Below, piece after piece: positions 5,277 to 27,910 of a stretch of 46,030 nt of DNA. The position numbers and the translations under genes are program-made. The DNA comes from Oscillospiraceae bacterium (GTDB taxonomy: Bacteria; Bacillota; Clostridia; Oscillospirales; Oscillospiraceae): NCBI GenBank assembly GCA_017458085.1, contig JAFTGE010000055.1, positions 1 through 46,030 on the forward strand, given 5' to 3'. Below the pieces are notes generated by a model. That model was not told the origin of the DNA and did not search any database. It worked only from the letters and a program-made list of their open reading frames with translations. Each line of letters begins with the position of its first letter. Positions within the stretch are counted from its first letter, which is position 1.

Positions 5277-5316
5277 AAGAACAAGGAACCTGCATTTTTG
5301 CAGGTTCCTTGTTCTT
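5277..5316. terminator. Bidirectional intrinsic terminator between the importer and the sortase operon
   Basis: An 18-bp perfect stem (5277-5294 with 5299-5316) has a four-base T loop, with A-rich and T-rich flanks. It lies between convergent genes; its right arm overlaps the stop codon of the signal peptidase-sortase gene. It should stop transcription from both sides. Confidence 0.9.
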
Positions 5317-6739
5317 ATTTTATGGGTACGCCCCCGGCGCTGCTGACCGGCTGGAGCAGGCCGTGAATGACCGAACGGGCGTCGTCGAACACATACGCGC
5401 AAGTGGAGAGCATCACATAATGACCGCTTGGGTCAAGTTCAAAATCAGAACTAATTTCAGAAAAAGTCTGCGCATTTTTTAAATATTGATCAAAATCCGG
5501 TCCGTAATCATGGAAGATCAAATATGCGTCGGAATAGGCGGAGGTATTGTAAGCGCTGAAAAGAGTGACCTTATAATCCTGGGTGGGAGTGAGCAGCCAC
5601 ATAACCGGGTGGTCCTCAAAATACTCCTGATGCTGCCATAGATCAAGGGTGGCAAACATGGAATTATCGTTCATGTGGTGGCCATAGATGATGGTAGAGG
5701 GGTCGGTAAAGTGGGGGGTATTGTTGGAATCAGAGAAGATAGAGCCGGCATAATTATAGCTATGATCATAGGCATGGTGGAGGTAGGTGTCGTTGGTTTC
5801 GCCGTGGAGGACGGGGTAATTGATGACAGTATCAGGGCAGTAGATCCACCCTTCAATGTCAGGGTTAAGGGCAAGCAGAGCATCAAAATCCACCTGGATG
5901 GGGGCCTGTTCAGCCAAGATATGGGGTGTATCTTCGATCGGGGCAGGGGCCTGATTCACCGGAGCTGTAAGCTGGGTATAGCGGGAGGAGGTGGCCTCAT
6001 AGAGGGCGTCACTGACCCGGTATTGATGCTTGACGAATGCAACGACGCCGGCGGAAACAGAAAAAACCAGCAGCATGGAAAGCATTAAAACCATGCGAAT
6101 GATTTTTTTTGAGCTTCTTTTTTTGGGGAGTGTGGGCGGGGTTATTTCGGAGACAGACGGCAGGCTCAGGCCGCGAACATACTCGGACTCCGCAAGGAGA
6201 AGCCTCTCCTGGGCGCGGACACGCAGGCGAGCAGCGAGGATATTGAACATGACACCGCAGCTGGCCAGGGCAAGGAGATAGAGCTTGCCGACATTGCCGG
6301 CCAGTATCTCCATGATCGCGCCGACAATGGGGGCGTGATGCTCCACACGGCCGATCAGATCATCATAGGGAACGGGCTCAAAATCCTGCACGGTGTTGGC
6401 GTCGCCCTTGGTGACCAGCTCACCGGCAAACTGGTGGTTTTCCAATACACGATGGGTCACCGGCTCGCCGCCGTGCCAGAAGGCGATGATCTCCCCCGGC
6501 TGAAGACCAGCGGGTTCGGTGGGGCGGACATAGATCACGCTGCCGACGGGTATGGTCGGCTCCATGCTGCCGGAGACGACATGATAGATCTGATACCCGA
6601 CAAGGCGGGGCACAGTCAGCGGAACACAGGCAGCAATAACAAAGAGAATGATCAGCGTTCCGAGAACGTTACAGAGGGCGGGAAAAAATTTCCCGCCCTG
6701 AGAACGTTTTATGGGTTTAGAGCTTTGATCTTTATTCAT
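5315..6739 (-). CDS. Fusion protein: SipW-type signal peptidase I joined to a class B sortase
   Basis: One 474-residue polypeptide carries two enzymes. Residues about 20-165 are an ER/SipW-type signal peptidase: membrane helix 24-46, catalytic Ser58 in VVSGSMEPT, His96 in VTHRV (the Ser/His rather than Ser/Lys type), and the KGDAN box at 111-115. A second hydrophobic segment near 148-170 is followed by a basic linker and a third helix at 212-236. Residues about 283-462 are a class B sortase: DIEGWIYCPDT, catalytic His354 in YGHHMNDNSMF, Cys447 in MLSTC and Arg455. The gene is last in a coupled six-gene block and overlaps the upstream gene by eight bases. No good Shine-Dalgarno is visible, so it probably depends on coupling. 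Two upstream genes encode proteins with SipW-type signal peptides, the expected substrates of the first domain. The reading frame is intact across the junction. Confidence 0.92.
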   Translation of the reverse strand: MNKDQSSKPIKRSQGGKFFPALCNVLGTLIILFVIAACVPLTVPRLVGYQIYHVVSGSMEPTIPVGSVIYVRPTEPAGLQPGEIIAFWHGGEPVTHRVLENHQFAGELVTKGDANTVQDFEPVPYDDLIGRVEHHAPIVGAIMEILAGNVGKLYLLALASCGVMFNILAARLRVRAQERLLLAESEYVRGLSLPSVSEITPPTLPKKRSSKKIIRMVLMLSMLLVFSVSAGVVAFVKHQYRVSDALYEATSSRYTQLTAPVNQAPAPIEDTPHILAEQAPIQVDFDALLALNPDIEGWIYCPDTVINYPVLHGETNDTYLHHAYDHSYNYAGSIFSDSNNTPHFTDPSTIIYGHHMNDNSMFATLDLWQHQEYFEDHPVMWLLTPTQDYKVTLFSAYNTSAYSDAYLIFHDYGPDFDQYLKNAQTFSEISSDFELDPSGHYVMLSTCAYVFDDARSVIHGLLQPVSSAGGVPIK

Positions 6740-7775
6740 TGTCAGAGAACAAACTGTCTAACTCAGCCTGCTTCTCCTCCTCTTCGCGCTGCTTCTTCTT
6801 ACGATAGAAGAGCAGATACCAGTAGAGGAAGATCACCAGAATCAGAAGCAAAACAGCAATCAGAATGAGGACAAATCTGGGGAAGGTCCGAGATGTCTTT
6901 TGGGAAGAGGACGCCGGGTGAGGCGTAGTGGGCGTGCTTATGCTTTCGGTACTGCCGCCGGACTGATCCGGGGCGGCCAGAGGCACATCCAAATCCAAAA
7001 TATCCTCAACAGCGACACCGTTTTGCTGGGCCGCAGCTTCGGCGCCGATCGTGCTGCCGACATTGCCGGTGTTCCCGGCATTGGTCGTGTTGCCGGTGTT
7101 GCCAGTGTTGCCGGTGTTGCCGGCGTTCCCGGTGTTGCCGGTATTACCCGTATTCCCTGTGTTCCCGGTATTGCCGCCGGTGGTGGTCCCGCCAGTGGTT
7201 GTAGTCGTGTTATTCGTGGCGGGGATGGGATAATAATTGGCGGTGACGATCCTGTTGCCGCTGTCAGGCAGGGACACGGTAAAATACTTTTTCACAACGC
7301 CATTGTCGCGGGGCTCCATGCCCTCGATATAATACAGCTTACCGAAGACGGTCTCCCCGGGATTGCCATAATAGGTATTGGACATGAGCAGCGCGCCGGT
7401 ATTCCCGTTACGGCACTCGATGGTCACGGAGACTTCGGAGCCGCGGATACCGTAGGCCACGACATAGTCAGCGTCATGGTTGGCGCGGATGACGTAGTTA
7501 TTAACGGAGGTGTTGTTATCCTTGCCCGCCTCACGGACACCCTTGATATAGTACTTGTCGGTGTCATAACCGGAGACGAGGCTTGTATCAAAGTTCGCGC
7601 TCCAGTCGGGAGACTTATCGGTGTAGACCACGACGTTTGAAGAACCGACGGTCCCCTGCTCACCGGAAAAGACGCGCACCGTATAGGTATAATTGTCCGC
7701 GAAGGCGCTCTGCCCCAGAGAGAAGCAGAAAACCAGCAGAAGCAGCAGAGGCAGAAAGCGTTTGAGCATTTTCAT
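6732..7775 (-). CDS. Surface stalk protein with Asn-Thr-Gly repeats and C-terminal membrane anchor
   Basis: A 347-residue secreted protein. There is a signal peptide (residues about 1-26, ending SAFA), then a globular region with two beta-rich stretches. The second (VSVTIECRNGNTGALL, then GNPGETVFGKLYYIEG) resembles MucBP-like domains, but weakly. A low-complexity stalk of about 13 Asn-Thr-Gly triplets follows, then a Ser/Thr/Pro linker, one membrane helix near 302-323, and a charged tail of about 24 residues. No LPxTG-like motif precedes the helix, so it is probably a stably membrane-anchored base or exposed stalk. It starts three bases after the preceding gene, with GGAAGGG upstream. Function unknown; its place beside the sortase implies a part in assembling the fibre. 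Confidence 0.75.
   Translation of the reverse strand: MKMLKRFLPLLLLLVFCFSLGQSAFADNYTYTVRVFSGEQGTVGSSNVVVYTDKSPDWSANFDTSLVSGYDTDKYYIKGVREAGKDNNTSVNNYVIRANHDADYVVAYGIRGSEVSVTIECRNGNTGALLMSNTYYGNPGETVFGKLYYIEGMEPRDNGVVKKYFTVSLPDSGNRIVTANYYPIPATNNTTTTTGGTTTGGNTGNTGNTGNTGNTGNAGNTGNTGNTGNTTNAGNTGNVGSTIGAEAAAQQNGVAVEDILDLDVPLAAPDQSGGSTESISTPTTPHPASSSQKTSRTFPRFVLILIAVLLLILVIFLYWYLLFYRKKKQREEEEKQAELDSLFSDNE
7056..7172 (-). repeat. Nine-base tandem repeat encoding the Asn-Thr-Gly stalk
   Basis: About 13 imperfect copies of a 9-bp unit (AAY-ACN-GGN on the coding strand) encode NTG triplets, with a few NAG, NTT and NVG variants. Because the unit is a multiple of three, slippage would lengthen or shorten the stalk without breaking the frame. 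Confidence 0.85.
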
Positions 7776-7778
7776 GGT

Positions 7779-8576
7779 TCAGCCCTTCCTTCCGTAGAGA
7801 CGGTCGGTATAGGCGTCCAGGGCCAGATAGAGGAAGACAAGGCCGCTGACAACCATGGCAATATAGAAGGGAGAGAGATTATACTCATCACCGGTCTTGA
7901 CGACGGTAGTGCGGGAATTGGACTGCGGCACCTCAACAGCAAAACGCAGGCTCAGCTCACCGTCGGTGTTCTGATAGTCGTTACCCTGGGATTCGCCGTC
8001 GAGGGCGACGACCAGCTCCACGGTCCCGTGACGCGTGGCGGAGGGGGAAAGCGTATCAAGGAAGAAATAATCCTCCAGAGAGGCGGTGGCGATCTCAAGG
8101 CCTTCCCTGCCGCCAAGGACAACGTCGCTGTTATTGGAGGCGTTCTGGCCGCCGACGCGCTCACTGTTATAAATCGTCTGGGGCGTGCCGGAGGGATTCG
8201 TATAGGTCAGCGTATAGGTATAGCCGCCGCCATGGGCCACCTGAGCGGACTCCATGATCGCGTTGATAATATTCCACATGTAGAAGTCAACGCTTTTGGA
8301 ATAGCGGTTATAGACATTGGCAGTCATCTTGATGCGGTCACCGGGCTGCATGCTGCCTAGGGCAAAGATAATCGCATCCTTTCCGATTTTATAATCATTT
8401 ATAACCTGTCCGTCCTTGATCACGACCACATTCGCGGTATCGAGCGCTTGACCGTTGGCCGTAAAGACGACATCCCAGGTATACTCGGCGTCATAGCTTT
8501 CGGCGGCGAAGGCGGGCACCGAGAGGGAGGAGACGAGCAGGAGCATCAGGAACAGCGCGAATATTCTCTTTTTCAT
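7779..8576 (-). CDS. Sortase-anchored surface protein with C-terminal VKTGD signal, TasA/TapA-like
   Basis: A 265-residue secreted protein with a conventional signal peptide (cleaved near SVPAFA). The middle has features reminiscent of TasA/TapA-type fibre proteins: SMQPGDRIKMTANVYN, and later VELVVALDGESQGNDYQN leading into LSLRFAVEV. The end reads VVKTGDEYNLSPFY, then a membrane helix (IAMVVSGLVFLYLALDAY) and a short basic tail (RLYGRKG). That tripartite layout is a cell-wall sorting signal; the TGD core suggests a class B sortase substrate rather than LPxTG. GGAGGGG lies before the ATG. It is the only protein of this block with a clear sorting signal, so it is a good candidate for the anchor of the structure. 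Family assignment is tentative. Confidence 0.72.
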   Translation of the reverse strand: MKKRIFALFLMLLLVSSLSVPAFAAESYDAEYTWDVVFTANGQALDTANVVVIKDGQVINDYKIGKDAIIFALGSMQPGDRIKMTANVYNRYSKSVDFYMWNIINAIMESAQVAHGGGYTYTLTYTNPSGTPQTIYNSERVGGQNASNNSDVVLGGREGLEIATASLEDYFFLDTLSPSATRHGTVELVVALDGESQGNDYQNTDGELSLRFAVEVPQSNSRTTVVKTGDEYNLSPFYIAMVVSGLVFLYLALDAYTDRLYGRKG

Positions 8577-8588
8577 TCTGTCCCCTCC

Positions 8589-9389
8589 TTAACGATACTC
8601 ACCCCAGGCGCTGGTGCGGGCCGCGTCGGCATGTTTGTTCTGGACGGCGTCGACCTGAACATCGACGACGAAACCAATGTCGTCATACGAATACGTGATG
8701 ACCGTCTGATTTCCGTTCTGGGTCTGAACCACCTTGGGACTGAGGAACTTAAACACGTCGTTCTTGATGGTAAGGCTGTCGGCAAACTGGGCGGTGCCGC
8801 CGCTGGGCAACAAGCCCTTGGTGTAATAAAGGACGATGCGCTCACCGCTTTCGGAGGGAGCGTCATCCAGCGTCCAGCCCTCACCCAGCGTCAGGCCGAT
8901 GTCAATGAGCTTGGGATCGAGATTCAGCTTCTTCGTGCCGGTGCCGTGGAACCAGCCGTAGTCATCCGGGGTCTCGCTGGTATCGACCCAGTAGCGATAG
9001 ATGGTGACGCGGACATATTCGTCAATGGTGCCGGTGTTCTGCACACCGAGGTCGATCGGATATTTCTTGCCGACGACCAGGGACTTGTCCCCGGCGTCCT
9101 TGACCATGTTCGGAATGAGATCGGCAAAATAATCCTGGTAGACCGTGCCGGTCGCCTGATTGCTCCAGACACCGTTGGCAGCGGTGGTGGAATAGTCACG
9201 GCTGACGATGACCTTTCTGTTCTCCGTCAGGGCGACGCCGATATTGGTCAGCGCCATGTCGGAATAAAAGGTATCAGACTGAATATTCAAGGCGGCGCGG
9301 GTGGTGCCGATGGAGCCTGTCAGGAGCAGAGCCAGGGCAAGCAGGAACAGCACACCCGTAAAGATGGGAGAGCGAAGCGCTTTTTTCAT
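8589..9389 (-). CDS. TasA/camelysin-like protein with SipW-type signal peptide
   Basis: A 266-residue secreted protein. The N-terminus has a basic start, a hydrophobic core, and then GSIGTTRAALNIQSDTFYSD, the pattern of SipW-dependent signal peptides. The mature part contains VGKKYPIDLGVQNTGTIDEY followed by VRVTIYRYW, which matches the TasA/camelysin beta-sandwich fibre proteins. There is no C-terminal membrane helix or sorting signal. The start overlaps the end of the previous gene by four bases (ATGA), with a G-rich site upstream. By family knowledge such proteins are trimmed by SipW and polymerise into surface fibres; the signal peptidase half of the fusion enzyme is the likely processor. 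Confidence 0.78.
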   Translation of the reverse strand: MKKALRSPIFTGVLFLLALALLLTGSIGTTRAALNIQSDTFYSDMALTNIGVALTENRKVIVSRDYSTTAANGVWSNQATGTVYQDYFADLIPNMVKDAGDKSLVVGKKYPIDLGVQNTGTIDEYVRVTIYRYWVDTSETPDDYGWFHGTGTKKLNLDPKLIDIGLTLGEGWTLDDAPSESGERIVLYYTKGLLPSGGTAQFADSLTIKNDVFKFLSPKVVQTQNGNQTVITYSYDDIGFVVDVQVDAVQNKHADAARTSAWGEYR

Positions 9390-9910
9390 GACTGGCTCCC
9401 CCCTTCCTCAATCACAGTGACTTTGCCGAGCGACCAGGAGGCATCGATATCATAGTGATCATCGACATAGAGCGCTGGAACGCTCTCATGCACAACGATC
9501 ACGTTAAAGTGCTCATCGGCCTTGTGGTCAGAGCCGTAGTCAATGGTAATCGTGAGCGGGGTGTCCGTGGACTTACCGGGCAGGACGGGCTTGGTATAGC
9601 GCCAGAAGCCGGGCTTGCCCGTATCCTCCACCCAGCCGTCGCCGGGGGTGAAGGTCAGCGGATACGCAGAACCGGCATACGCGCTGACGCGGACAAAGAC
9701 CGGGTTATCGGAATCGTCGTTATTCTTGATGGTAATGATCTTTTTCCCGGAGTCCACGCGTTCCTCGATCTCGGTACGTTCACCGAGACGGATGACATAG
9801 CCGCCGCGGGCAGTGGCATAGGTGGTAAAGTATGCCGAGGCCGCGCCGATGCCGGAGGTCAGCACCAGAACGACAGCGAGAAGAAAGAGCAGCCATTTGC
9901 TTTTTTTCAT
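9386..9910 (-). CDS. Small TasA-like protein with SipW-type signal peptide
   Basis: A 174-residue secreted protein. Its N-terminus reads MKKSKWLLFL, a hydrophobic core, and SGIGAASAYFTTYATARGGY, very close to the SipW-type pattern in which an AYFT-like motif follows the core. The mature part has a short beta-rich region with KIITIKNNDDSDNPVFVRVS, comparable to TasA-family strands. It has no anchor helix. It is joined by four-base ATGA overlaps at both ends, so its synthesis is coupled to both neighbours; GAGGAGG lies before the ATG. It is probably a subunit or accessory tip/base protein of the same fibre as the next gene. Confidence 0.75.
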   Translation of the reverse strand: MKKSKWLLFLLAVVLVLTSGIGAASAYFTTYATARGGYVIRLGERTEIEERVDSGKKIITIKNNDDSDNPVFVRVSAYAGSAYPLTFTPGDGWVEDTGKPGFWRYTKPVLPGKSTDTPLTITIDYGSDHKADEHFNVIVVHESVPALYVDDHYDIDASWSLGKVTVIEEGGSQS

Positions 9911-11076
9911 GATGTCGCCTCCTCGGGCAGGCCGTCTATAATCTCAACAGTCTCGTCAGCATGCACAGGATCAAGCGGCGTGCCGCTGTCATTATAAACG
10001 AAGTGGTTGATCAGGCCATTGCCGCCGGTGTTGGTGGTATCGTCGGTATTGGTGAAGGTCGCGCGGGCCACCTCATCGACAGCGATCGTCAGGCCGTCGA
10101 CCGTGGCCTGCCCCACGGTGTAGTGGGAACCGGAATAAACCTCGGTGACGGTAACGGTAGCACCGATGGGAATGGCGCCCTTCAGGGTCAGGGTCTTCGT
10201 GCCGTCGGCGGTGAAATCGAGAGAGACCACGTCGCTGTATACCGTTTTGTTGTTGAGCGTGGCCTCGATCCGGAAGACAAAGGTCGCATTATAGGGGCCG
10301 CGGTAGCCGGTGAGCGTCTTGACGATTTCCAGATCGCCCTTGCCCTCTTCACGGCCGGGCTTGAGATTGACGGTGACCTTATCGAGCCAGTCGCTGTTGT
10401 CGGAAGTATTGAAGTAGCTGCCGATGACATTATCCTCGGCGTCCTTCACCTCGGTGACGGCCTTGCCGGGCAGGGCCACCAGCTCGGGGGCATAGGTATA
10501 GTGGTAGCGCTCGGTATCGACAAAGGTATAGAGCGTCTTGGCCGGGGTCTGGGTCGAATCCTCGGTCTCGTCTTCCTTCTCGATCCAGTAGCCATCGGCA
10601 GGAGGCGTCTGGTTATGGGCAAGAATCAGGTAGAGTCCGGGGGCCAGGCTGTTCTTATCCGTAACAGGGCTGACACCGCCCGCCTTCACGATCGCGGCCG
10701 CCTTCTGCGCATAGTCACGCCAGGCGTCCCAAGCGCTGCGGGTATCCTTCTCAAGATCGGCAGAGGCCGGGTCAACCTGGCCCATGGTGTCGATGGAGTC
10801 AAGGGTATTAAACGGCGCCGTCAACGTGAACTTGTACGCATCACTGTAGGTATCGGGCACGGCGGAGGCCACAAGGTACAGGTCGTAGGTAAACACGCCC
10901 TCCTTGTTTAAATCCTCATTAAACTCCGCAGAGGCAGAAGGATTAACCGTGAGCTCACAGTGGTCAAAGGTCGTGGCAGCATAGGCGTGCAGCGTCGGCG
11001 CGAGGCATAGCAGCGCCAACAGCACGGCCAGAATCCGCACGGGCTGTCTGTATTTGATTGTACGGAGCTTGGTCAT
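9907..11076 (-). CDS. Secreted pilin-like protein with Cna-type domain, no anchor
   Basis: A 389-residue protein with a signal peptide (about 1-33, ending HAYA). The first half resembles the N-terminal domain of Gram-positive pilins (FTYDLYLVASAVPDTYSDAY, then a long YAQKAAAIVKAGG helix region and LAPGLYLILAHNQTP). The second half is one Cna_B/DUF5979-like beta-sandwich beginning GDLEIVKTLTGYRGPYNATF, with TVTVTEVYSGSHYTV as the E-box-like strand and ATFTNTDD at its end. Unlike ordinary pilins it has no sorting signal or membrane helix, so it must be held non-covalently or by another domain's chemistry. It is the first gene of the six-gene block; GAGGAAAG precedes the ATG. No promoter is evident in the repeat-filled gap upstream, so it may be read through from srtC. 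Confidence 0.75.
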   Translation of the reverse strand: MTKLRTIKYRQPVRILAVLLALLCLAPTLHAYAATTFDHCELTVNPSASAEFNEDLNKEGVFTYDLYLVASAVPDTYSDAYKFTLTAPFNTLDSIDTMGQVDPASADLEKDTRSAWDAWRDYAQKAAAIVKAGGVSPVTDKNSLAPGLYLILAHNQTPPADGYWIEKEDETEDSTQTPAKTLYTFVDTERYHYTYAPELVALPGKAVTEVKDAEDNVIGSYFNTSDNSDWLDKVTVNLKPGREEGKGDLEIVKTLTGYRGPYNATFVFRIEATLNNKTVYSDVVSLDFTADGTKTLTLKGAIPIGATVTVTEVYSGSHYTVGQATVDGLTIAVDEVARATFTNTDDTTNTGGNGLINHFVYNDSGTPLDPVHADETVEIIDGLPEEATS

Positions 11077-11145: not shown

Positions 11146-11241
11146 CGGATTGTCCCTAAAAGGACTAGGCGCGGCTATGGATAGGCTTCGCCCTTTTCAT
11201 GCGCCGTCGCCACACCAGTGTGCGCACTGGTTCGCAATGAC
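11146..11241 (-). repeat. Structured intergenic repeat, copy A
   Basis: About 95 bp, nearly identical over its first 68 bases to copy B at 12205-12297. It can fold into nested hairpins; the tip stem here is CCAGTG/CACTGG, whereas copy B has a different but equally paired stem. It lies between srtC and the downstream block. Orientation is arbitrary. Confidence 0.75.
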
Positions 11242-11257: not shown

Positions 11258-12151
11258 CTATTTCAAGTCGATATCGTCAATGTCCTCCACCTGCCGGTCG
11301 GTCAGGCGGGGGCGACGGCGGCGCGTGATGATCAGCGCCGCAACAAGGAAGATGAACAGCAGCGGGATCACGATGGCCGGAATGGTGATATAGTGCGGGA
11401 TCATGACAGCCTCGGCCTGAACGACCAGCTCGCCGTTTTCATTTGCGACGCGGTGGCCGCGCACCAGCATGCGGTGGGTATTGACGCCGTAGGGTGTGCA
11501 GGTGACGAGCGTGCAGTAATCCTCACCGGGAACGGTGACAAGCTCGGAGACGTCGCCGGGCAGAACAATGCGAATCTGGTCAACCTCATAGGTGATCATC
11601 TGGTTGAGGACGGTGACCGTGAAGCGGTCCCCTTCCGTGATCTTGTCCAGATCGGTAAAGAGCCGGGCACTGGGCAGACCGCGGTGGCCGGAGAGCACAG
11701 CATGGGTGCCGGGGCCGCCGACGGGAAGACTCGTCCAATTCACATGGCCGACGGCGATCTGCAATACCGATTCCTCGGTGGAATGGTAAATGGGAATGTT
11801 GACATTGATGGTGGGGATATTGATATAGCCCATCAGCCCGGTGCCGGAGAGGTCGAGCAGCAAATTATACTCGGCCAGGTTCTCCTCGGTCATGGCGTAG
11901 GGGTTCTCCTTTTGCAGCAGGCCCGCGTTATAGTCGTGGGCGGCCTGGATCATGGCGGCCAACTCAGCGGCGTCCGTCTCGTCCACCTGACGGGAGTAAG
12001 AGACGATGGCGCGGGTGGCGTGGAAGGAGTTCCACCAGTCGCTGACCGTGGGATAAGCCATGATCGCGATGCCGAGCAGCATGACGAGAATCAACAGCCA
12101 GGTGGTCAGATTCGATTTTTTCTTCTTTTTCGGGGCTTCCTGTTCGTTCAT
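11258..12151 (-). CDS. srtC: Class C (pilin-polymerising) sortase
   Basis: A 297-residue membrane transpeptidase with an N-terminal helix (about 17-33), a lid-like ENPYAM segment, and the catalytic triad His156 (LSGHRGLP), Cys218 (LVTCTPYGVNTHR) and Arg227. A C-terminal membrane helix (about 255-275) and a basic tail follow, as is usual for class C enzymes. It should link LPSTGG pilin subunits through a pilin lysine and may add the giant LPSAGG adhesin. The Shine-Dalgarno is poor (AGGACGG at best), suggesting low expression relative to the pilin. It is bracketed by two copies of a structured repeat, so it looks like a separable cassette. Confidence 0.93.
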   Translation of the reverse strand: MNEQEAPKKKKKSNLTTWLLILVMLLGIAIMAYPTVSDWWNSFHATRAIVSYSRQVDETDAAELAAMIQAAHDYNAGLLQKENPYAMTEENLAEYNLLLDLSGTGLMGYINIPTINVNIPIYHSTEESVLQIAVGHVNWTSLPVGGPGTHAVLSGHRGLPSARLFTDLDKITEGDRFTVTVLNQMITYEVDQIRIVLPGDVSELVTVPGEDYCTLVTCTPYGVNTHRMLVRGHRVANENGELVVQAEAVMIPHYITIPAIVIPLLFIFLVAALIITRRRRPRLTDRQVEDIDDIDLK

Positions 12152-12204: not shown

Positions 12205-12297
12205 CGGATTGTCCCTAAAGGGACTAGGCGCGGCTATGGATGGGCTTCGCCTTTTTCATGCGCCGTCGCCACGGGCCCTTCGGGCCCTCGCAATGAC
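12205..12297 (-). repeat. Structured intergenic repeat, copy B
   Basis: The partner of copy A. It contains a GTCCC-TAAA-GGGAC hairpin, a longer GGCGC/GCGCC pairing, and a tip hairpin GGGCCC-TTC-GGGCCC. The tip stem differs in sequence from copy A yet stays paired, as expected for selection on structure. Orientation is arbitrary. Confidence 0.75.
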
Positions 12298-12441: not shown

Positions 12442-14028
12442 TTACTCTTCGCCAACGCGCTTCTTGGTGACCAGCACCACGCCAGCGCCGACAACCATCA
12501 GACCGCCGATGACGTAGAAGATGGTCGTACCAATGCCGCCGGTGGAGGGCAGCTGAGTGCCAGCATTATTGGCTACTTCTTCTGTAAGGTAACTTACAGA
12601 AGTAGTAGTGACAGCCTCTTCTTCTTCGCCAGTTGTCGTCTCGGTAGTAGTCTTGGTAGGTTGGAAAGAAATCTTGCTTGTGAGCTTGTTGTAGCCATCA
12701 GGAGCCGTGATTTCTTCAAGGAGATATGTCTTATCATTATCAAGACCATCAATCACGATATTTCCAGAGTCAACAGTCGTAAAGGTCTCGGAAGCTCCGG
12801 CTTCATCACTAGAAGTTGCTTTGCGATAGTTTGTACCAGAACCTACGACTTTGATAACATTACCATTGGAATCCTGCAGCTGGAAAACTGCACCGGCGAG
12901 GTTCTTCTTTGCGCTATCAGAACCATCATACTTGAGAATTTCAACCTTGTAGGTTTCAACTTCAACTTCTACATCCTGAGTGCTCTGCTCAGAGTAGTCG
13001 ATGTGTGTCTTGTTTGTCTCTTTCTCTGCATAAGAAGCATTTTCATTAACAGTTGCAGTATAGGTGATTACATAAGTGCCATTCTCATCAAGCGCCTTAA
13101 CCTTAGCCGCAGAAATGATAACTTCAAATGTGCAAGTGGAATCAATTGTATATTCTTTTTCTTCAAGGGTTGCGGTCTTAGAAGACTGTGTCAGAACGAT
13201 GTAGTCGGTTTCCTTGGTCAAACCGTTAATTGCGATAGAATCTGCGTTCAGGGTCAAACCATCGCTCATAACGTCGTGAACTTTGATCGGCTTGTCAGTA
13301 CCCTTACCATCGGTAACAGTAATCTGGAAATTGACCGTATCGCCAATAGCCACGTCAGAATGTTCGCCATAATCATGGGAATCATCTTCGTCCTTAACTT
13401 TCTTGTCATCGGACGGGATAGTATTCTTCTCACGAATGGTAGCAGACGGCTCAGTGGTATCCAAAGAGCAGAGTGAACCGGTAGAAGTGTCCACAAAGTA
13501 GTAGCCAGGGCCAGCTGTTGTAACTGTCAGAGTGATGGTAGTTCCACTAGCTTCACCAGTTGCAGCAGAGTCCTTTTCAGACTTCGCACCATCGAGAAGT
13601 GTCGCAAATGTTGCTGGATCGAAAGAAGCGGTAGCAGCAACGTTATATACAGTCTTTCCACCGACCTTGGCTGTGGTAGGCGTAAAAGTAAGACCGTTTG
13701 CGGTAATAACGCCAGTTTCAGAATCCGTCGTCCCACTAGATGTTACAGTGCTCCACCATGCTGAATCCTCGACAATAGAATAGGAATAAGCAGCGGCAAG
13801 AGAACGACCATCAGGAGCAGGAGCTTCGGGCAGTTCCACTGCTTCATCATTAGTTCCACTGTATGTTACATCAAAAATCTTGTACGCAGTGTAGGTTTCT
13901 CCTTTAACTGCGTTGTCAATTGTGATGGTATAAGCAGGCTCATCCTCCGCAAAAGCACTCAGGCTCATGACGGAGAACGCCAGGACAAGAACCAGCGCGA
14001 AGGCCAGAATCTTTTTAAACTGTTTCAT
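12442..14028 (-). CDS. Major pilin, LPSTGG-anchored, SpaA/Cna_B type
   Basis: A 528-residue covalent pilin backbone. The signal peptide (about 1-27, ending SAFA) is followed by an N-terminal domain, then a pilin-motif-like KNTIPSDDKKVKDEDD stretch whose Lys residues are candidates for intersubunit bonds. A middle fimbrial isopeptide domain comes next (VNFQITVTDGKGTDKPIKVHD, DGLTLNADSI). A C-terminal SpaA/Cna_B domain has LAGAVFQLQDSNGN and the E-box strand YLLEEITAPDGYN. The sorting signal is LPSTGG (bases 12535-12552), then a membrane helix and KKRVGEE. It has its own promoter with an extended -10. The central part is visibly more AT-rich than both ends. Polymerisation by the adjacent class C sortase is inferred from family knowledge. 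Confidence 0.95.
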   Translation of the reverse strand: MKQFKKILAFALVLVLAFSVMSLSAFAEDEPAYTITIDNAVKGETYTAYKIFDVTYSGTNDEAVELPEAPAPDGRSLAAAYSYSIVEDSAWWSTVTSSGTTDSETGVITANGLTFTPTTAKVGGKTVYNVAATASFDPATFATLLDGAKSEKDSAATGEASGTTITLTVTTAGPGYYFVDTSTGSLCSLDTTEPSATIREKNTIPSDDKKVKDEDDSHDYGEHSDVAIGDTVNFQITVTDGKGTDKPIKVHDVMSDGLTLNADSIAINGLTKETDYIVLTQSSKTATLEEKEYTIDSTCTFEVIISAAKVKALDENGTYVITYTATVNENASYAEKETNKTHIDYSEQSTQDVEVEVETYKVEILKYDGSDSAKKNLAGAVFQLQDSNGNVIKVVGSGTNYRKATSSDEAGASETFTTVDSGNIVIDGLDNDKTYLLEEITAPDGYNKLTSKISFQPTKTTTETTTGEEEEAVTTTSVSYLTEEVANNAGTQLPSTGGIGTTIFYVIGGLMVVGAGVVLVTKKRVGEE

Positions 14029-14161: not shown

Positions 14162-14210
14162 TGCAAGGGGTCGGGTGTGCAGGGGTCGGCGGGAGGGTTA
14201 CGGATTGCCC

Positions 14211-14307
14211 GTAGGGGCCGACGCCTCGGCGGCCCGATGCGGATTCGCCGAAATCGGGCAATATCCCGGTGGGTTACCGCCGGGACGCCGAGGGCGGCGT
14301 CCCCTAC
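14211..14307. repeat. 97-bp element with inverted termini, copy 1
   Basis: It begins GTAGGGGCCGACGCCTCGGC and ends GAGGGCGGCGTCCCCTAC; the ends are imperfect inverted repeats of about 26 bases. With copy 2 it forms a direct tandem repeat of period 138 bp. It has no coding capacity and resembles a MITE or REP-like unit. Confidence 0.75.
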
Positions 14308-14348
14308 AATTCTCTTGCAGGGGTCGGGGGTGGGGTTACGGTTTGCCC

Positions 14349-14445
14349 GTAGGGGCCGGCGCCTCGTCGGCCCGATGCGGATTCGCCGGAATCAGACGAT
14401 GTTCCGATTGGTTACCGCCGGGACGCCGAGGGCGGCGTCCCCTAC
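14349..14445. repeat. 97-bp element with inverted termini, copy 2
   Basis: Same length and ends as copy 1, with the right terminus identical and scattered differences in the centre. The flanking AATTCTCTTGCAGGG sequence is duplicated as well, so the whole 138-bp unit has been duplicated. Confidence 0.75.
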
Positions 14446-14508
14446 AATTCTCTTGCAGGGTTCGGGGAACGGCCCCGGATGGGAGGGAAGCTTTGCGCTA
14501 CAAGCAAA

Positions 14509-17500
14509 TTACGCTTCACCTCCCCTTCTGCGGCGCCGGAGCAGAAGCAGAAGCGCCGCACCCAGGAACAGCCCCAGTCCGCCGGGCAGGTACGCCAGCG
14601 TACCCGCGCCGCCTGCGGAAGGAAGGGCAACGCCAGGGGTGTTCTTAACCAGAATTGCCTTGTCTGTTTCGGAATAGCTAAGAACTGATTCAGAGCCGTC
14701 TACAACCTCAACAGACAATGTGCCATCCGTTTCCCTCTTCACATGGAACCAAGGATCAGATGTGGTCTTGACATAACCGTCCGGGGTCTTGGTCTCGACA
14801 AGCTTGTAGTAGCCTTCCGTCAATCCTTCAAACGTCAGCTCGCCGTCGGTATTGACCTCGGCTTCATCCCGCTTGTCCGTGTAAGCCGGATCGCCCACAG
14901 CATCGTACCGATACAATTCAAACTTCGCACCGGTCAGATGCCTGGTTGTCGTATTCGCGTCGACCTTAATGATTTTAACGTCCAGTGTGGCTGCCTGCTC
15001 ATAGGTATTCACAAAGGCTGCTTCACCCGGTGTTTTCGCTGCCGTGGCTTCGGCCTTTACGTCACCATTGCTATCCTTGTCAGGCGATGTCGTAACGGTA
15101 TACCCCGTCTCTTCATAACCAGACTCTTTGAAGGTCACCACAGTCCCCTTCGGGAGATCACTGATCGTCCAGGTGTACACATACGGATCCGCTTCTGTCC
15201 CAGTGCCCGTTTTCTCAACATCAGTGTCAGAGGGCTTGAGCTCCGTCGGACGATCTGCCGTCACATTATCGCTATACGAAACTGTGATCTTGAATGTGCT
15301 CGGAAGCTCGGCAATACCGCTGAACGTCTTTGTTACCTTCACGCTGCCGAGGGATTCTGTAGCGTTGTTGATCGTCACTTCGCCCTTACCGGCTGTGAAG
15401 ACAATATTGCTCTCTTTCTCGCCCGTTTCGGAATTTGTCGTTGTAACTGTAGTTACTGCACCGACAGGTGTGGCTGCGCTTGCGGAGCCAGTGCTTTCCG
15501 TCACCGACTTCTCGACGAATTCATAGTTCGGCTCATCCTCAGTGGTACCGGTGTTCTCTCGCTGTGAGTATTTCGTCGTGTAGTTCTCGAACACATCGCT
15601 AACATCCCAGACGTCATTCTCATAATCTGCTGTATTGCCTGAACCGTAACCACGTTCCTGAACAACATACTGGTAAGCCTTAGCATTCTGCTCATTAGCC
15701 GCGATCGGAAGGCCTTGCAATGTCTTCGCGCCATTAACCGGGACTTTCAGATAGTAGTGACCGGCACTCGGATAGAAGTCACCATCTTTGAGACCATACT
15801 TTGCCGCATCTGCCGCCAGTTCATCCGTGATGTCGATATTGTCACGATAGACCTTGGCGTAGATGACAGACGCAGGGACTTTTTCACCTTCTTCGACAGT
15901 CCAGTTCTTCGATACTTCCAGAGAGCCGACGGTTGTCTGGTTCTGGATGACTACAGCCTGCGTTTGACTGAATACACCGTGCTCTTCATTTCCATAAAGG
16001 GTTGTAAATCCAGGCACAGGCTGCTCGAAGAAGAAATACAGATACCCAGCTTCGGCCGTAAACGATGTTGCCCAATTATCGACCTCAGAGATCGGAATTG
16101 TTACATCTTTCCCGTTTACCTGATAACGAACAAGCTTGCTGTCCTCTTCAGACCAGGTCATGTTGTACTTCTGCAACTGCTCATTGATTTTTGTGCGGAG
16201 CGCAGGAATATAAGTACTCTCTATTGACTCCTTTGAAATCAGCAATTCATTGTCCGGAGGAGTGATGTTAAGGTTAGCAATAACCTTACCTGCTGCAACC
16301 TCTTCCCAGCCTCCTTCTCTGCCCGGGCCTCCGTTGGATTTCTCTATTCCACCATAAGAATCTCCTGTATCCAAGAAAACATAATACTTGCCATTATAGA
16401 GACACAGAGAGCCTCTCTGTATGTACAGTCCTTGTCCGTCATTAAACAAATCTTCGGGAGTATAAACCGGAGACGGCCTGATACTAGTAACCCAGTCTCC
16501 TCTTACTTTCTCTCCTCTCTGCACCTGACCCACATATTCCTCAAGATCATTGTAGCTCAGATTGGTCTGCGCATTGGAACGAACATAGTAATACTGCCCA
16601 TTGGCCTCGAAGATAACTTTGTTCTTAACAGTGTTGTTGTTATCTTTCCATGTATCTCTGCTTCCAACAACTCCGTAGATGTCACCTTCCGTCACAAAGC
16701 TAACACCGCCCGCAGCACCAACACCCGAAGGCAGTTTAACACGATAAACATCCACAAGTACTTCATCCGGATGATTTGTCATCGGATTTCCATCCTGATC
16801 GAGCCACTGCTTATGCATCGTGATGAACTTCTCGTCTGGCTTCGGAACAGAGTTTGTGGCTGATACTGTTACTGTCGTATTCTTCTCGCTGGCACTGATC
16901 GGATTGGATTCACTGCCCATACCGTCAAAGCTGAGGCTGGTATAAGCCGATGCCAAACCTGTACGACCGGTTTCGACCAGATAGTACTTATAGGTCGTGG
17001 TCTTCGTTGTGTTTCCATCGGTACTCACCGTCTTCGACAGCAAATCTTTTTCAAGGTGCTTCCACACGTCTCCGTCTTCAGCTGCCGTCAGAGTGATGGT
17101 CTTCGGGAAACCGCTACCGTCGGGATCGGTGACAGACGGCAGTGTGGTTGTGTTTCCGGAACTACCAGAGCCAATATCTCCTTTACCTAACAGATCTTCA
17201 TATCCAGGTAGTGTGGCACTGTTTAAATCACTTCCACCCCAATCGTCTGATAGAATAAGTTCAGCAATACCGCTATTAGGTATAGGAACACTAATTATAC
17301 CTGAGCCGGAATTTAATGGCTGGCTTGCACCTCCATTAATTGTATATGCTTTGTTTCCTCCATTATTTGAGTAATTATCGCTGTATGAGTAAGAAACGTT
17401 GACCGTTGTTCCTCGTTCAACCGCATACTCATGAAGGATCGTGGCACTACCCCAAGATGGCTTCTTACCTACTCGTAGGGTTATTTCTTTGGATTCATTA

Positions 17501-20500
17501 TCACCATCACCATCATCACCTGTTTCGGTAATAGTCGTCGTCGCAACCTGATGCAGTTCAAATGTGACAGAGCCACTCTCGGGCGGTGTTGCATCTCCTC
17601 CTCTATCCCATGCCTTGTTCAGCTGGATATTCAGCGTCTCAACTTCAACATTTTCATCCGTCGATTCGTAGATGTTGTTAACCACAAAGTCCAGTCGGCC
17701 GTTGTACAGGTCCTCACCATAAGAACCGGCGATTTCCGGGATGGCGGTGTAGTCGCCGCTCTCCTTCGTGAACTTGTCGCTGTAGTGATATCCGCTGCCA
17801 TCCTCGTTGCTGCGCCAAGCATACTCGGTCAAAATCTGGGTCTCTTTGTACGTCCAGACCTTGCCGTACTTATCAATAATCTGATCCGGGATGCTGGCCT
17901 TATCCTCCGTGATGGTGTACATACCCGGCGTACGATTGCTGATCAGAATCTCGCCAGCTTCAGCGCCACTGACTGTGATATCAAAGGTGCTCGGCTTTTC
18001 CGTGGTTTCGGTATAGCCAGCAGCATAATTCTTCGTATCCGCCGCATCATGCTCGCCCTTGTGTGCACCAACCACACTCGCAGGCGAATCATCCGATTTC
18101 GTCTTGATCGTGAAGCGATTGGTCACGTCATTGAAGAGATCGATCTTCTCGTCATTGGAGCCTTTGATGTTCTTGGTGACCTGAATAGCAACTTTACCAT
18201 TGTCATTTTCCTTATTGGTAAAGGATGCTTCACCTTCAACCACAGCCGCTGTATCAGAGGCAACGGAGCTGCCATCAGCCTGAATTGCATATGTGGTATA
18301 TCCAACCAAAACTTCCTCTTTGACAACATATTTGAAAGAAGTCTCGTCAAGTTCAGGCAGGTTTTCCCACTTATATTGAGGCTGCGTGGCTGAAAGGGTA
18401 ACCGGATTCGTTATCCCAGATCCCGTGACAATCTCGCCGGCAGATGTACCGTCCTCGCCATCATCAGAAGAATCTGTGACCGGCACCTTGTACAGAGTCA
18501 TTTCAACTTCCAAGCCCGCGGGCCAGCGATCTGATCCATCCTTATTCGACCAAGCCTTTTTGACAGTGACATCAGTTGTAGGAACTTCGGCTTCTACAAA
18601 GGTATTCGTAATCGTCTTGCCGTCAGCCGAGGTCGTCTGTCTGAAGATGCCGGTATCGAGCAGGTTATCACCTGTCTTCTTTCCGTCAGTCCCCTTCAGA
18701 TATACGCCGGTCTCAACGACTTTGTAGGTATAGTCCTCACGATTACCGCTTGTATCCATACCGATTGCGGGCAGACCCTTCCACACAAAATGCCAAGGCT
18801 CATTCTCATAATACTTGCCAGTCGGATTACTATCCGCCGCACCATCAAGCGTCATGGTCTGTGACGCATTATACTGATCAGATGCCTTCATCGGATCTGC
18901 CGCGGTCGAGCTGCCGTTGATGTACTGCTTCAGCTGCACTTCGATGACGAAATCATCTTGTGTATACGCCACGCCATCGATGGTAAATTTGCCCTCGACA
19001 GCACCAGCCCACTTCTTTTCAAAGTTGACCTGCGTATTGGAATTCGTGATCGTGGCATGATGGTAACCGCTTACAGCACCAGTCTGTACCGGATAATACC
19101 TGTTATTATCACCTTCATAAGTTTCCGGTGTGATTGCATTGCCGCTTGCATCTGTATAATTGATGAAGTAGTTTGCATTCGAGTACCACTCACCATTAAC
19201 ATTTGTCTCGGCGATAAAGTAATCATAGTCCGGACTCAGGGCATACCAACCGGCAGACCAGGTTTCGTGAAGGTCCTGATTCCACTTCGTGGCATCAACC
19301 GCTTCCTTCAGACCTTCCGGCACAATCTTGATCTGATCGTACCAGTGTGGCTTACCAGTTTCAGTCTTTAACCTTCTGTACAGAACGACATCAACACTAT
19401 CCGGCGTGGTTTCTACATTCTCCCAAACCTTATGCACCTGCAGCCAGGTATATTCCGGTCGGATCGTGTTTGTGATCGTAACTGTCCGGTCATCGCTTGT
19501 TGCGTCCACATACTGGTGGGAATAACTGGTATCGAATCTGGTCAGATCCGTTGTGTCATCCATATCCAGATCGGTTTCGTAGATGAAATAGTAGTAGGGA
19601 TGGCCGTCTTCATCCGTCTTATCCAGGTCTGTAATCGTAGTTGTCCAGTTATTTCCGCCACCGCTGATGGTCCCCGTTTTATATGGCTCACCAAGTGTGT
19701 GCTGCGGGCGCTCTTCCAGAACCGGCTCCATGAACTCTTCTGCGTTCAGATTCTTATAATCCAGTTCGATCGTCGTATCGGCTGTGATGTTGTCAATCGT
19801 GAAGATATGCTCTTCATACTTGACCCAGCTGTACAACGTTATCTCTCTGGAAGAAGAATGCTGCGCGTCAAAGTGCTTAACTTCACCGTTGACCTTAACA
19901 TCATAGAGCTCACTCGGATACGGATCCCACCACGCGTGAGTGACGAACAGCTCAACATCCGATCCATCCAGAACCTGGTAGGTCTTCGTCTTGGTCGTTG
20001 AAATGTCCGTATGCCCAGTGTCATTATCAACTTCTTCCGGATATGTCAGCGTAACCGTATGATAGGTCGGCTGAGTGGTTGTACGATAAATCTCGTAGCT
20101 GACCTCGGTATTGCCACCGTGGTTATTTCCGCTCCAGTTCTTGTTGAGGGTGATGGTGGTTTTATTCGGCTCTTCCTTGCTGTTCGTAACCTTAATCGTA
20201 CCCTTGGTGATGCCGTCATTGTTATCGTATGTAACAGTATAGCCAGCTTCCTCCGGAGTCCGATCATTATCGTTAACGCCTGTCTCTGTTACGAAATAGG
20301 TATAACTACCATCCTCGTCACTGAGCGCGAGGTTATCAATATCTGCCTGCCAATTGTTATCGGCATTCAGAGTGACAGTGTGGTTTTCGAGGGTGTAGAC
20401 GGAGTCCTCGATGGCTGTTGCGCCTTCCCCTTTTGAGGAGAGTGCTACCGTAGGTTTCTTCTCGCCAAAGGCCCAGTTTGCATTCCAGCTGTTGATATCG

Positions 20501-26355: not shown

Positions 26356-26407
26356 AGGTGTTCTCCCTTCCATCTATAATATATTAATAGATATTTTAAA
26401 ATTGTAA

Positions 26408-26989
26408 TTATTTTACAGGTCCAATCGATTGAAACGGCCAGACCCGGAAAAGCAGGCGGCCAACCACCGCGTCATTGCTGACGCAGCCAACCGCGGTGTT
26501 GCGGCTGTCCACACTCGTCTCGCGGTGGTCGCCCATGACGAAGCACTTTCCATCCGGCACCTGATAGGGCAGGCTGATGTTGCACTCGCCCAGAGATTTT
26601 TCTGTAACATAGGGTTCATCGATCAGCATGCCGTCGACATAGACATTCCCATCGGCATCAATGTCCACGAACTCGCCGGAGGTGGCGATCACACGCTTGA
26701 TCAAAATGCTGTTGTTGAAATAAAAGCCGATCACATCGCCGCGGGAAAACTTGGCGTTATTCACCGCAACCACGATGTCCTTGTCAAACAGCGTATCGGT
26801 CATCGATTCGCCGCTGATCTGCATCACGGGCAGAAGCAGCATCGAAATGATCACCGCCGCCGCAACCACGACAAGCAAAGAATACAACGTGCTGCGCAGC
26901 GCACGGGTATAGCTGCGTTTATGACGCTCCTTTTTCAGCTCGGCCTCGAGCTCCTCAACAGAAGGAAGCTGCATTTCTTTCTCTTCCAT
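26408..26989 (-). CDS. lepB: Signal peptidase I, Ser/Lys type
   Basis: A 193-residue type I signal peptidase. A charged, partly helical N-terminus of about 30 residues precedes one membrane helix (about 33-54). The catalytic Ser62 lies in ISGESM and Lys98 in LIKRVIAT; the later MGDHRETSVDSR box completes the S26 family signature. It is the classical bacterial Ser/Lys dyad, unlike the Ser/His domain in the fusion protein of the same locus. It sits 52 bases upstream of the giant adhesin and presumably cleaves the long signal peptides of adhesin and pilin, as dedicated peptidases do in other sortase pilus islands. The short gap to the adhesin gene is extremely AT-rich. Confidence 0.93.
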   Translation of the reverse strand: MEEKEMQLPSVEELEAELKKERHKRSYTRALRSTLYSLLVVVAAAVIISMLLLPVMQISGESMTDTLFDKDIVVAVNNAKFSRGDVIGFYFNNSILIKRVIATSGEFVDIDADGNVYVDGMLIDEPYVTEKSLGECNISLPYQVPDGKCFVMGDHRETSVDSRNTAVGCVSNDAVVGRLLFRVWPFQSIGPVK

Positions 26990-27831: not shown

Positions 27832-27910
27832 ATCACATACGCCCCCGCGCACAAACGCATATCCGCCTCAAAAGGGCAGAGAACGCTGCATAATAAGAAT
27901 GGCTTACATA

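What the first reader, a model, noticed from the sequence alone, without database searches (positions are those of the whole stretch)
5315..11076. Candidate new surface-fibre system: TasA-like subunits with a sortase
Six genes are coupled by overlaps or gaps of 3-12 bases: a Cna-type secreted protein, two proteins with SipW-type signal peptides and TasA-like strands, a VKTGD-anchored protein, a stalk protein with membrane anchor, and the peptidase-sortase fusion. TasA fibres of Bacillus are non-covalent and use a separate SipW; sortase pili are covalent. This operon seems to combine the two: a TasA-like fibre fixed to the wall by sortase through the VKTGD protein.
Basis: partly seen in the sequence, partly recalled or inferred. 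Interest (0 to 1): 0.82.

Follow-up and report, generated by a model that had tools for sequence, protein, structure and literature searches.

The report
Sortase pilus operon with TasA-like module
A bacterium carries six linked genes, found in similar order in eleven other genomes, that appear to combine two ways of building surface fibres: a covalent sortase-built pilus and proteins related to the biofilm-fibre protein TasA, one of which carries a wall-anchoring signal.

Summary
The six genes are real and tightly coupled. The block, with variations, recurs in 11 other genomes of the same order. In 11 of 12 loci it directly follows a class C sortase gene; the LPXTG-type pilin gene is visible before that sortase in 9. 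So it is usually part of a pilus operon. In the twelfth genome the two blocks lie on different contigs.

Profile comparison of mature parts supports a TasA/BsaA-type domain in g2, g3 and also g4, which bears the VKTGD sorting signal. AlphaFold models were too weak to decide. g1 looks like a pilin: D1-type domain and invariant pilin-motif lysine, but no sorting signal. The peptidase-sortase fusion was found only here; five other loci have the two genes separate but adjacent, in one frame with a single TAG between them in G390.

Best reading: the class C sortase ends the pilus on g1, and SipW-processed TasA-type proteins plus sortase-anchored g4 root it in the wall. Families and conservation are supported; the linkage is inferred. 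Main rival: two separate fibres from one operon. New variant of a known kind.

The parts
9907..11076 (-). g1: secreted pilin-like protein; N-terminal pilin D1-type domain (about 10354-10896), C-terminal DUF5979/DUF7601 domain (10045-10332); no sorting signal, no C-terminal membrane segment
   Evidence: DUF5979 31.9 bits (cut-off 25); D1 profile 96.9%, E 1.5e-10, reversed controls 0.0%; no C-terminal anchor in 12 of 12 homologues. Against: no pilin Pfam family matched in any of the 12
10360..10389 (-). g1 pilin-motif-like stretch W230-x3-V-x-V-x-L-K239: predicted acceptor lysine for the class C sortase
   Evidence: K invariant in 12 of 12; motif Trp in 11 of 12 (absent in L039; spacing differs in L120); aligns with the pilin-motif end of the D1 profile
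9386..9910 (-). g2: small secreted protein, SipW-type signal peptide (..ASAYFTT), BsaA/TasA-type mature domain
   Evidence: Tyr27-Phe28 invariant in 12 of 12; mature profile 98.4%, E 5.5e-15 to the TIGR04090-type set
8589..9389 (-). g3: secreted protein, SipW-type signal peptide, BsaA/TasA-type mature domain
   Evidence: 96.0% (E 3.8e-9) to the TIGR04090-type set, 92.7% to the PF12389 set; weak direct hit to TIGR04090 (E 0.0096, below its cut-off)
7779..8576 (-). g4: TasA/camelysin-type domain with ordinary AxA-type signal peptide and C-terminal sorting signal
   Evidence: 95.4% (E 1.8e-8) to the PF12389 set; sorting tail in 10 of 10
7887..7901 (-). VKTGD sorting motif of g4 (residues 226-230), before membrane segment and basic tail
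   Evidence: T and D invariant in 10 of 10, G in 9 of 10
6732..7775 (-). g5: membrane-anchored stalk protein with MucBP-like region and Gly/Asn/Thr-rich stalk
   Evidence: C-terminal hydrophobic segment 294-326; MucBP matched in 5 of 8 family members scanned (E up to 0.5, best 1.8e-5), not in the window copy
5315..6739 (-). g6: SipW-type signal peptidase fused to class B sortase
6245..6655 (-). SipW-type peptidase domain of g6 (residues 29-165), the only match over the cut-off in this genome (two weaker ones below it)
5366..6106 (-). class B sortase domain of g6 (residues 212-458)
11258..12151 (-). class C (pilus) sortase
   Evidence: NF033745 264.6 bits, cut-off 160
12442..14028 (-). major pilin, LPSTGG, SpaH/EbpB family
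   Evidence: NF033902 99.7 bits, cut-off 95
14509..26373 (-). 3954-aa adhesin with CHAP, CnaB and SpaA domains, LPSAGG tail; probable tip protein (inferred)
26408..26989 (-). type I signal peptidase next to the adhesin
   Evidence: TIGR02227 116.5 bits, cut-off 47; similar-looking genes beside this block or pilus genes in L120, L121, L123, L124, L186
5277..5316 (+). 18-pair terminator-like hairpin at the operon's end (a perfect inverted repeat; scored on the + strand)

Best explanation
The six genes are the downstream part of a pilus operon. The class C sortase joins LPSTGG pilins under a large LPXTG-type adhesin. g1 is the last subunit of that chain: it offers a pilin-motif lysine (K239) to which the sortase joins the final pilin, but unlike a normal basal pilin it has no sorting signal of its own. 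g2 and g3, matured by the SipW-type peptidase, are TasA/BsaA-type beta-sandwich proteins that connect by donor strands. They hold g1 and pass the load to g4, a TasA/camelysin-type subunit that the class B sortase (or another sortase where no srtB is adjacent) fixes to peptidoglycan through VKTGD. g5 is a membrane-held MucBP-like protein at the assembly site. Here peptidase and sortase are one polypeptide, so maturation of g2/g3 and anchoring of g4 would happen at the same membrane spot. Supported by computation: the genes, their families, their conservation, g1's lysine and missing anchor. Inferred: every contact between subunits, donor-strand joining, the sortase-substrate pairing, and the rooting of the pilus.
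For: Gene order srtC-g1-g2-g3 in 11 of 12 loci, with srtC-g1 gaps of about 1-51 nt in the 10 others, depending on the start chosen (181 nt in the window). g1's N-terminal part matches pilin D1 profiles with the pilin-motif lysine aligned (weak hit to SpaD 4hss, E 0.016) and matches the small LPKTG pilin in the basal gene position of G584's separate pilus locus (95.9%), which itself is over the D1 cut-off (PF16555, 35.8 bits, cut-off 23.1). g1 lacks a sorting signal in 12 of 12. I saw no LPXTG-type basal pilin between the major pilin and g1 in the 9 loci where both are visible, whereas an ordinary pilus has one that is joined by the class C sortase and then anchored (PMC8244301, passages). g2, g3, g4 have TasA/BsaA-type mature domains; g4 keeps a sorting tail in 10 of 10. 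TasA filaments join by an N-terminal strand (PMC10151520, passages). The six cassette class B sortases fall in one supported set of 8 rows (99/98) with two others.
Against: In G584 the TasA-type block, g1 included, lies apart from the pilus genes, and that pilus locus has its own LPKTG small pilin: the block can exist without being the root. No pilin Pfam family matched any of the 12 g1 proteins, and g1 does not match the cassette's own major pilins (1.9% full length; 0.9% N-terminal parts), though those pilins match the D1 set only weakly themselves (50.9%). srtB is adjacent to sipW in only 6 of 12 loci, the fused one included. L123 and L124 have short LPXTG-type proteins in place of g4 (no match to g4, D1 or g1), which could themselves be anchors, and no g5 was found there. 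Deleting the C. perfringens srtB beside sipW-bsaA changed nothing measured. Models of g4 (mean pLDDT 59.2) and g2 (52.6) do not prove the fold: TasA (8aur) ranked 12th for g4 with TM 0.34, and no TasA entry is among the 50 rows listed for g2. Profile searches of PDB sequences with g2, g3 and g4 did not list TasA. A D1 match does not show that the lysine is used.
Confidence: 0.38

Rival explanations
1. Two separate fibres are made from one operon: an ordinary sortase pilus, and an independent TasA/BsaA-type fibre (g2, g3) tied to the wall by g4 and the class B sortase.
For: G584 carries the block apart from a pilus locus with adhesin, pilin, class C sortase and small LPKTG pilin. C. perfringens BsaA forms SDS-stable filamentous polymers and needs SipW for secretion (PMC7395162, passages). 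g4 offers an anchor.
Against: g1 looks like a pilin with an acceptor lysine and no anchor, yet heads the block in 12 of 12. In 11 of 12 loci the block is directly downstream of srtC.
Confidence: 0.35
2. The class B sortase is a second pilus polymerase, as Spy0129 is in Streptococcus pyogenes, and joins g4 or other subunits into a shaft rather than to the wall.
For: Spy0129 is a class B sortase that polymerises pilin; the signal-peptidase-like SipA of the same operon is needed as well (PMC3019223, passages).
Against: A class C pilus sortase was found in 10 of 10 cassette genomes searched and in the window and L058 loci. srtB is not beside sipW in 6 of 12 loci.
Confidence: 0.1
3. g2-g5 do not form fibres. 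They are surface adhesins or assembly chaperones of the pilus that share the TasA-type fold.
For: No polymer evidence here; MucBP-like region in g5 relatives. B. subtilis TapA, an initiator of TasA filaments that cannot sit inside them, has an Ig-type fold like the TasA filament core (PMC10151520, passages).
Against: Two different SipW-type subunits with conserved N-terminal segments, as in fibre proteins.
Confidence: 0.13
4. About the fusion alone: it is a sequence error in a draft assembly, and the two genes are separate in the living cell.
For: Fusion seen once; in G390 the two genes are in one frame separated by a single TAG.
Against: The window's linker is some 17 residues longer than in G390 and shows no stop; the frame is open over 480 codons. 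No reads were examined.
Confidence: 0.15

Closest known systems
Clostridium perfringens sipW-bsaABCRSD operon with srtB in its 5' flank (PMC7395162, passages)
   Same: SipW-type peptidase, BsaA-type secreted matrix proteins and a srtB gene side by side; g2 and g3 mature domains match BsaA-family relatives.
   Different: In the passages read: srtB deletion without effect on BsaA, no LPXTG-like motif in BsaA, a two-component system in the operon, no pilus genes named. Here the enzymes are fused, a TasA-type subunit carries a sorting signal, and pilus genes precede.
Bacillus TasA/TapA/SipW and TasA/CalY/CapP fibres (PMC10151520, PMC13082335, passages)
   Same: Dedicated SipW, two or more TasA-type subunits, N-terminal strand joining known for TasA (inferred here).
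   Different: The B. cereus system is described as sortase-independent; here a sortase-type anchor (g4), a class B sortase beside sipW in half of the loci, and linkage to a sortase pilus.
Spa/Ebp-type sortase pili (basal pilin SpaB, PMC8244301, passages)
   Same: Class C sortase, SpaH/EbpB-family LPSTGG major pilin, large LPXTG-type adhesin, pilin-motif-like lysine in the protein at the basal gene position.
   Different: g1 lacks the LPXTG anchor that a basal pilin carries, and is followed by TasA-type genes.
Streptococcus pyogenes pilus operon (Spy0129 class B sortase with SipA, PMC3019223, passages)
   Same: Class B sortase plus signal-peptidase-like protein in a pilus operon.
   Different: SipA is described there as chaperone-like for pilin polymerisation; here the peptidase is SipW-type with catalytic residues in place, beside TasA-type proteins, and a class C sortase is present for the pilus.

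Membership tests
SipW-dependent TasA/CalY/BsaA fibre proteins | mature domain homologous to the family | tested here: met
   g2 98.4%, g3 96.0% to the BsaA-type set (g3 also 92.7% to the PF12389 set), g4 95.4% to the PF12389 set; g1, g5, pilin and reversed controls at most 2.0%. Against: g2 only 5.8% to the PF12389 set, g4 only 1.6% to the BsaA-type set. None reaches a curated family cut-off.
SipW-dependent TasA/CalY/BsaA fibre proteins | SipW-type signal peptide with aromatic residue just after the cleavage site (criterion from the abstract start of PMC10269814) | tested here: met
   g2: Tyr-Phe invariant in 12 of 12. g3 has a related type without the aromatic pair, g4 the ordinary AxA type: met by g2 only.
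SipW-dependent TasA/CalY/BsaA fibre proteins | TasA-type three-dimensional fold | tested here: inconclusive
   low-confidence models of g4 and g2 from two-row alignments; TasA 8aur rank 12 for g4, none listed for g2; g3 not modelled.
SipW-dependent TasA/CalY/BsaA fibre proteins | forms filaments | not testable with these tools
   needs purified protein
Sortase-assembled (Spa/Ebp) pilus | class C sortase and LPXTG major pilin | tested here: met
   both over curated cut-offs
Sortase-assembled (Spa/Ebp) pilus | basal pilin with pilin-motif lysine | tested here: met
   g1 by profile and motif; not by Pfam; use of the lysine not testable
Sortase-assembled (Spa/Ebp) pilus | basal pilin with its own wall-sorting signal | tested here: not met
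   absent from g1 in 12 of 12; none seen between pilin and g1 in the 9 loci where both are visible. L123 and L124 have short LPXTG-type proteins after g3.
Class B sortase | curated class B model and catalytic His, Cys, Arg | tested here: met
   (182.6 bits, cut-off 153.75)
Class B sortase | substrate is g4 VKTGD | not testable with these tools
   only adjacency; the own genome has ten sortase matches
C. perfringens sipW-bsa system | bsaRS two-component genes in the operon | tested here: not met
   none among the minus-strand genes from 5315 to 27852, by reading the ORF lists; no kinase family search was run

The most novel reading that the evidence does not exclude
A chimeric surface organelle: a covalent, class C sortase-built pilus that has no wall-anchored basal pilin and is instead rooted by a donor-strand-linked TasA/BsaA-type assembly whose anchoring subunit (TasA domain plus VKTGD) is fixed to peptidoglycan by a class B sortase that in this genome is fused to the SipW peptidase maturing its partners.
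Probability: 0.32. Interest if true: 0.85.

Novelty: new variant of a known kind. Interest (0 to 1): 0.62.

Why it matters
Sortase pili and TasA-type fibres are usually treated as separate inventions, one covalent and one strand-swapped. A conserved operon with both, with an anchorless pilin-like protein between them and a TasA-type subunit that carries a sortase signal, would show how the two can be combined. It gives a direct test of how a pilus is held when the protein in the basal position has no anchor, and of whether TasA-type fibres can be wall-bound. The peptidase-sortase fusion would be a natural physical link between signal-peptide removal and wall anchoring.

Tried and rejected
Stand-alone TasA operon: rejected as the general case, since 11 of 12 loci continue into the pilus sortase; kept as a rival because of G584. 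Fusion as an essential feature: rejected; apart from the window, no match without a stop covers both halves in 250 family genomes (matches to E 1e-30) or 384 order genomes (to E 1e-50). g4 as a plain anchor unrelated to TasA: made unlikely. g3, g1 and g5 were not modelled. PDB sequence-profile searches with g3, g2 and g4 listed no TasA-type or other fibre protein (the best g4 hit, 8qag at E 6.5e-05, is named sc-CC-6-95 and was not followed up; g2 listed mostly antibody chains from E 0.044). Viral contigs: no relative of g3. A genome-contig scan with the single protein g6 gave one relative only; an alignment would have reached further, and the scan could not be repeated. SrtB-g4 pairing by co-occurrence: not shown, because g4 keeps its tail in L041, L056 and L120, where srtB is not beside sipW.

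Literature: nine searches of open PubMed Central papers; in the rows listed I saw no title or abstract start about a SipW-sortase fusion, a sortase-anchored TasA-type subunit or this operon. Subscription papers are mostly not held and the lists were capped, so this is no proof of absence. I read passages only, of PMC7395162, PMC13082335, PMC10151520, PMC3019223, PMC8244301 and PMC9715654 (the last is not used in the argument); of PMC10269814 only the listing's abstract start.

Flaws and selections in my own scripts; one srtC row (L039) was translated out of frame and its stops written as X in the srtC profile, which still scored srtC genes at 372-443 bits in that call. I took 19 of the 20 loci and 24 of the 30; the comparison sets used 12 of those 19 (four too long, three atypical ones, L140, L141 and L143, removed by hand) and 22 of those 24 (two too long). 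hhalign values are for single pairs of small profiles, not calibrated database searches; 9 of the 15 D1 matches listed were used; 6 cassette sortases against 32 others; matches under 150 residues and the duplicate locus L014 left out; of the two others in the cassette set, G081's lies near a contig end, so a sipW beside it cannot be excluded; the L058 row lacks its signal peptide (likely start 5815). Alignment A8: the L058 row runs about 15 residues further at its C-terminal end than the window row. After and a re-reading I lowered the best explanation from 0.40 to 0.38 and the novel case from 0.33 to 0.32, because g1 does not match the cassette's own pilins or any pilin Pfam family.


Full report
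WHAT IS THERE. Six minus-strand genes run from 11076 to 5315 with overlaps of 4, 4 and 8 nt and gaps of 12 and 3 nt. g6 joins two enzymes: a SipW/archaeal-type signal peptidase (TIGR02228, 86.8 bits against a cut-off of 51.85) and a class B sortase (TIGR03064, 182.6 against 153.75), with residues at the expected catalytic positions in both halves (roles recalled). By its hydrophobic segments (16-49, about 150-172, 210-238) both catalytic domains would face outward (inference). It is the only SipW-type peptidase over the cut-off in this 93.5%-complete genome; two weaker matches lie below it. Upstream on the same strand lie a class C sortase, an LPSTGG major pilin of the SpaH/EbpB family, a 3954-aa LPSAGG adhesin and a type I signal peptidase. 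The last gene ends at an 18-pair hairpin (5277-5316).

CONSERVATION. I compared twelve loci: the window, L039 (G249), L056+L040 (G236), L041+L125 (G115), L057 (G224), L058 (Oscillospiraceae MAG RGIG6858, sheep rumen), L119 (G390), L120 (G584), L121 (G425), L122 (G532), L123 (G601), L124 (G599). In G236 and G115 the locus is spread over two contigs, whose joining I infer from the genes at their ends. g1-g2-g3 are present in all twelve. g4 with a sorting tail (VKTGD, VRTGD, PKTAD or IYTGD) is present in ten; L123 and L124 have short ELPESGG/ELPETGA proteins instead, which match neither g4 nor D1. srtC directly precedes g1 in eleven of twelve, with gaps of about 1-51 nt in ten and 181 nt in the window. 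The pilin is visible before srtC in nine; L039 ends at its contig edge, L125 shows only 710 nt before srtC with no pilin, and L120 is the exception. In that last genome (G584) the adhesin, pilin and srtC are on another contig, followed by a small LPKTG pilin and a further sortase-like ORF. Of the 10 G-handle genomes with the block, 10 have an srtC orthologue. The block is uncommon: full-length g3 in 7 of 394 order genomes (own included; 32 with any match at E 0.001), full-length g2 in 5 of 250 family genomes (own included; 21 with any match).

THE FUSION. Separate sipW and srtB genes stand side by side in L039, L058, L119, L121 and L122; the window has them fused; in the other six loci srtB is not next to sipW. 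L041 shows only about 1.2 kb after sipW, filled by a gene on the other strand. No other match covers both halves without a stop in 250 family genomes or 384 order genomes; in G390 the two genes share a frame with a single TAG directly before the ATG. The fusion thus looks like a private step (or, less likely, a sequence error), not the basis of the system. In a tree of 38 class B sortases the six cassette copies and two others form a set supported 99/98; the cassette copies are not one clade (3 changes, 0% of bootstrap trees with one), but are clustered (shuffles average 5.7, none of 500 as low).

WHAT THE PROTEINS ARE. Results: g2 98.4% (E 5.5e-15) and g3 96.0% (E 3.8e-9) to the BsaA-type set; g3 92.7% (E 4.3e-7) and g4 95.4% (E 1.8e-8) to the TasA/camelysin set. 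Against the reading: g2 scores only 5.8% to the TasA/camelysin set, g4 only 1.6% to the BsaA-type set, g2 and g3 match each other at 21-49%, and g4 does not match g2 or g3 (under 1%). Controls (g1, g5, pilin, reversed profiles) were at most 2.0%. None of the three reaches a curated family cut-off, and PDB sequence profiles did not list TasA. Its signal peptide is of the ordinary AxA type, so it probably lacks the N-terminal donor segment that SipW substrates keep; it would suit a terminal acceptor (inference).

g1 LOOKS LIKE A PILIN WITHOUT AN ANCHOR. Its N-terminal part matches Gram-positive pilin D1 domains (96.9%, E 1.5e-10; reversed controls 0.0%) and the small LPKTG pilin of G584 (95.9%), which is itself over the D1 cut-off; a PDB profile search gave SpaD (4hss) at E 0.016. 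The pilin-motif region aligns with W230-x3-V-x-V-x-L-K239; the lysine is invariant in 12 of 12 and the tryptophan is kept in 11 (L039 lacks it; in L120 the spacing differs). No g1 copy has a sorting signal. Against: none of the 12 g1 proteins matched a pilin family in Pfam, and g1 does not match the cassette's own major pilins (1.9%; 0.9% for six N-terminal parts), although those match the D1 set only at 50.9% themselves. In known pili the basal pilin is joined by the class C sortase and then anchored by its own LPXTG (PMC8244301, passages). g1 occupies the gene position after srtC but cannot anchor itself. Something else would have to hold it, and the next genes encode TasA-type proteins, the last of them with a wall signal.

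HOW IT LIKELY WORKS. See Best explanation. Supported by computation: genes, families, conservation, lysine, missing anchor. Inferred: donor-strand contacts (from TasA, PMC10151520, passages), g4 as class B substrate, g1 as chain end, rooting of the pilus. The two-fibre rival is nearly as likely, mainly because G584 keeps the block apart from a pilus that has its own LPKTG small pilin. The class B sortase could also be a polymerase as in S. pyogenes (PMC3019223, passages), but a class C enzyme was present in each cassette genome looked at.

STRUCTURE MODELS. g4 (two-row alignment, mean pLDDT 59.2, pTM 0.61) gave TasA fibre 8aur at rank 12 (E 0.014, TM 0.34) behind unrelated hits; g2 (52.6, pTM 0.54) listed no TasA among the 50 rows shown. 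These neither support nor refute.

KNOWN OR NEW. sipW, BsaA-type genes and a srtB gene are neighbours in C. perfringens, where srtB deletion left BsaA polymers and pellicles unchanged (PMC7395162, passages). That lowers the claim that the sortase polymerises TasA-type subunits, and leaves the anchoring role open. I saw the combination with a class C sortase pilus, an anchorless pilin-like protein, and a TasA-type subunit bearing a sorting signal in none of the rows that my nine searches listed. I rate it a new variant of a known kind.

Noticed in passing
window 27040-27852 and 26408-26989: A probable coiled-coil protein (one search matches only SMC-type coiled coils; XLF coiled coil) containing MTEKELHKLSRENLLQLLL and a type I signal peptidase precede the adhesin; similar pairs lie beside this block or pilus genes in L120, L121, L123 and L186. 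The first protein's role is unknown.
   Followed up: partly
window 14509-26373: 3954-aa adhesin with His/Cys-rich N-terminal repeats, a CHAP domain (residues 291-378), CnaB and SpaA domains and LPSAGG.
   Followed up: no
window 11146-11213, 12205-12272, 14178-14453: Repeats in the gaps of the pilus operon: a 68-nt repeat (96% identical) in the srtC-g1 and pilin-srtC gaps and a 138-nt tandem pair before the pilin. The srtC-g1 gap is 181 nt here and about 1-51 nt in ten relatives.
   Followed up: no
L123 15158-17935, L124 16846-19899: Large adhesins beside sipW whose tails (NTDDNSKLIPYIIAAVISG, TTGDESNLPLLIIAEVISG) resemble the g4 sorting tail, in the two loci that lack g4.
   Followed up: partly
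L057 4357-6399: g4 and g5 form one 681-aa open frame in G224, with a g5 signal-peptide-like stretch inside; the motif reads PKTAD and no srtB follows sipW.
   Followed up: partly
L119 15646-15652: sipW and srtB of G390 are in one frame with a TAG directly followed by ATG, a likely forerunner arrangement of the fused gene.
   Followed up: yes
L208 (own genome C58): A second pilus locus with an adhesin ending in a PETGG-type motif, a D1 backbone pilin ending in LPQTGS, and two ORFs matching the class C sortase profile.
   Followed up: partly
L186 7588-8839: G584's pilus locus has a small LPKTG pilin (over the D1 cut-off) related to the g1 N-terminal domain, followed by a sortase-like ORF just under the general sortase cut-off (36.0 against 39.35 bits).
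   Followed up: yes
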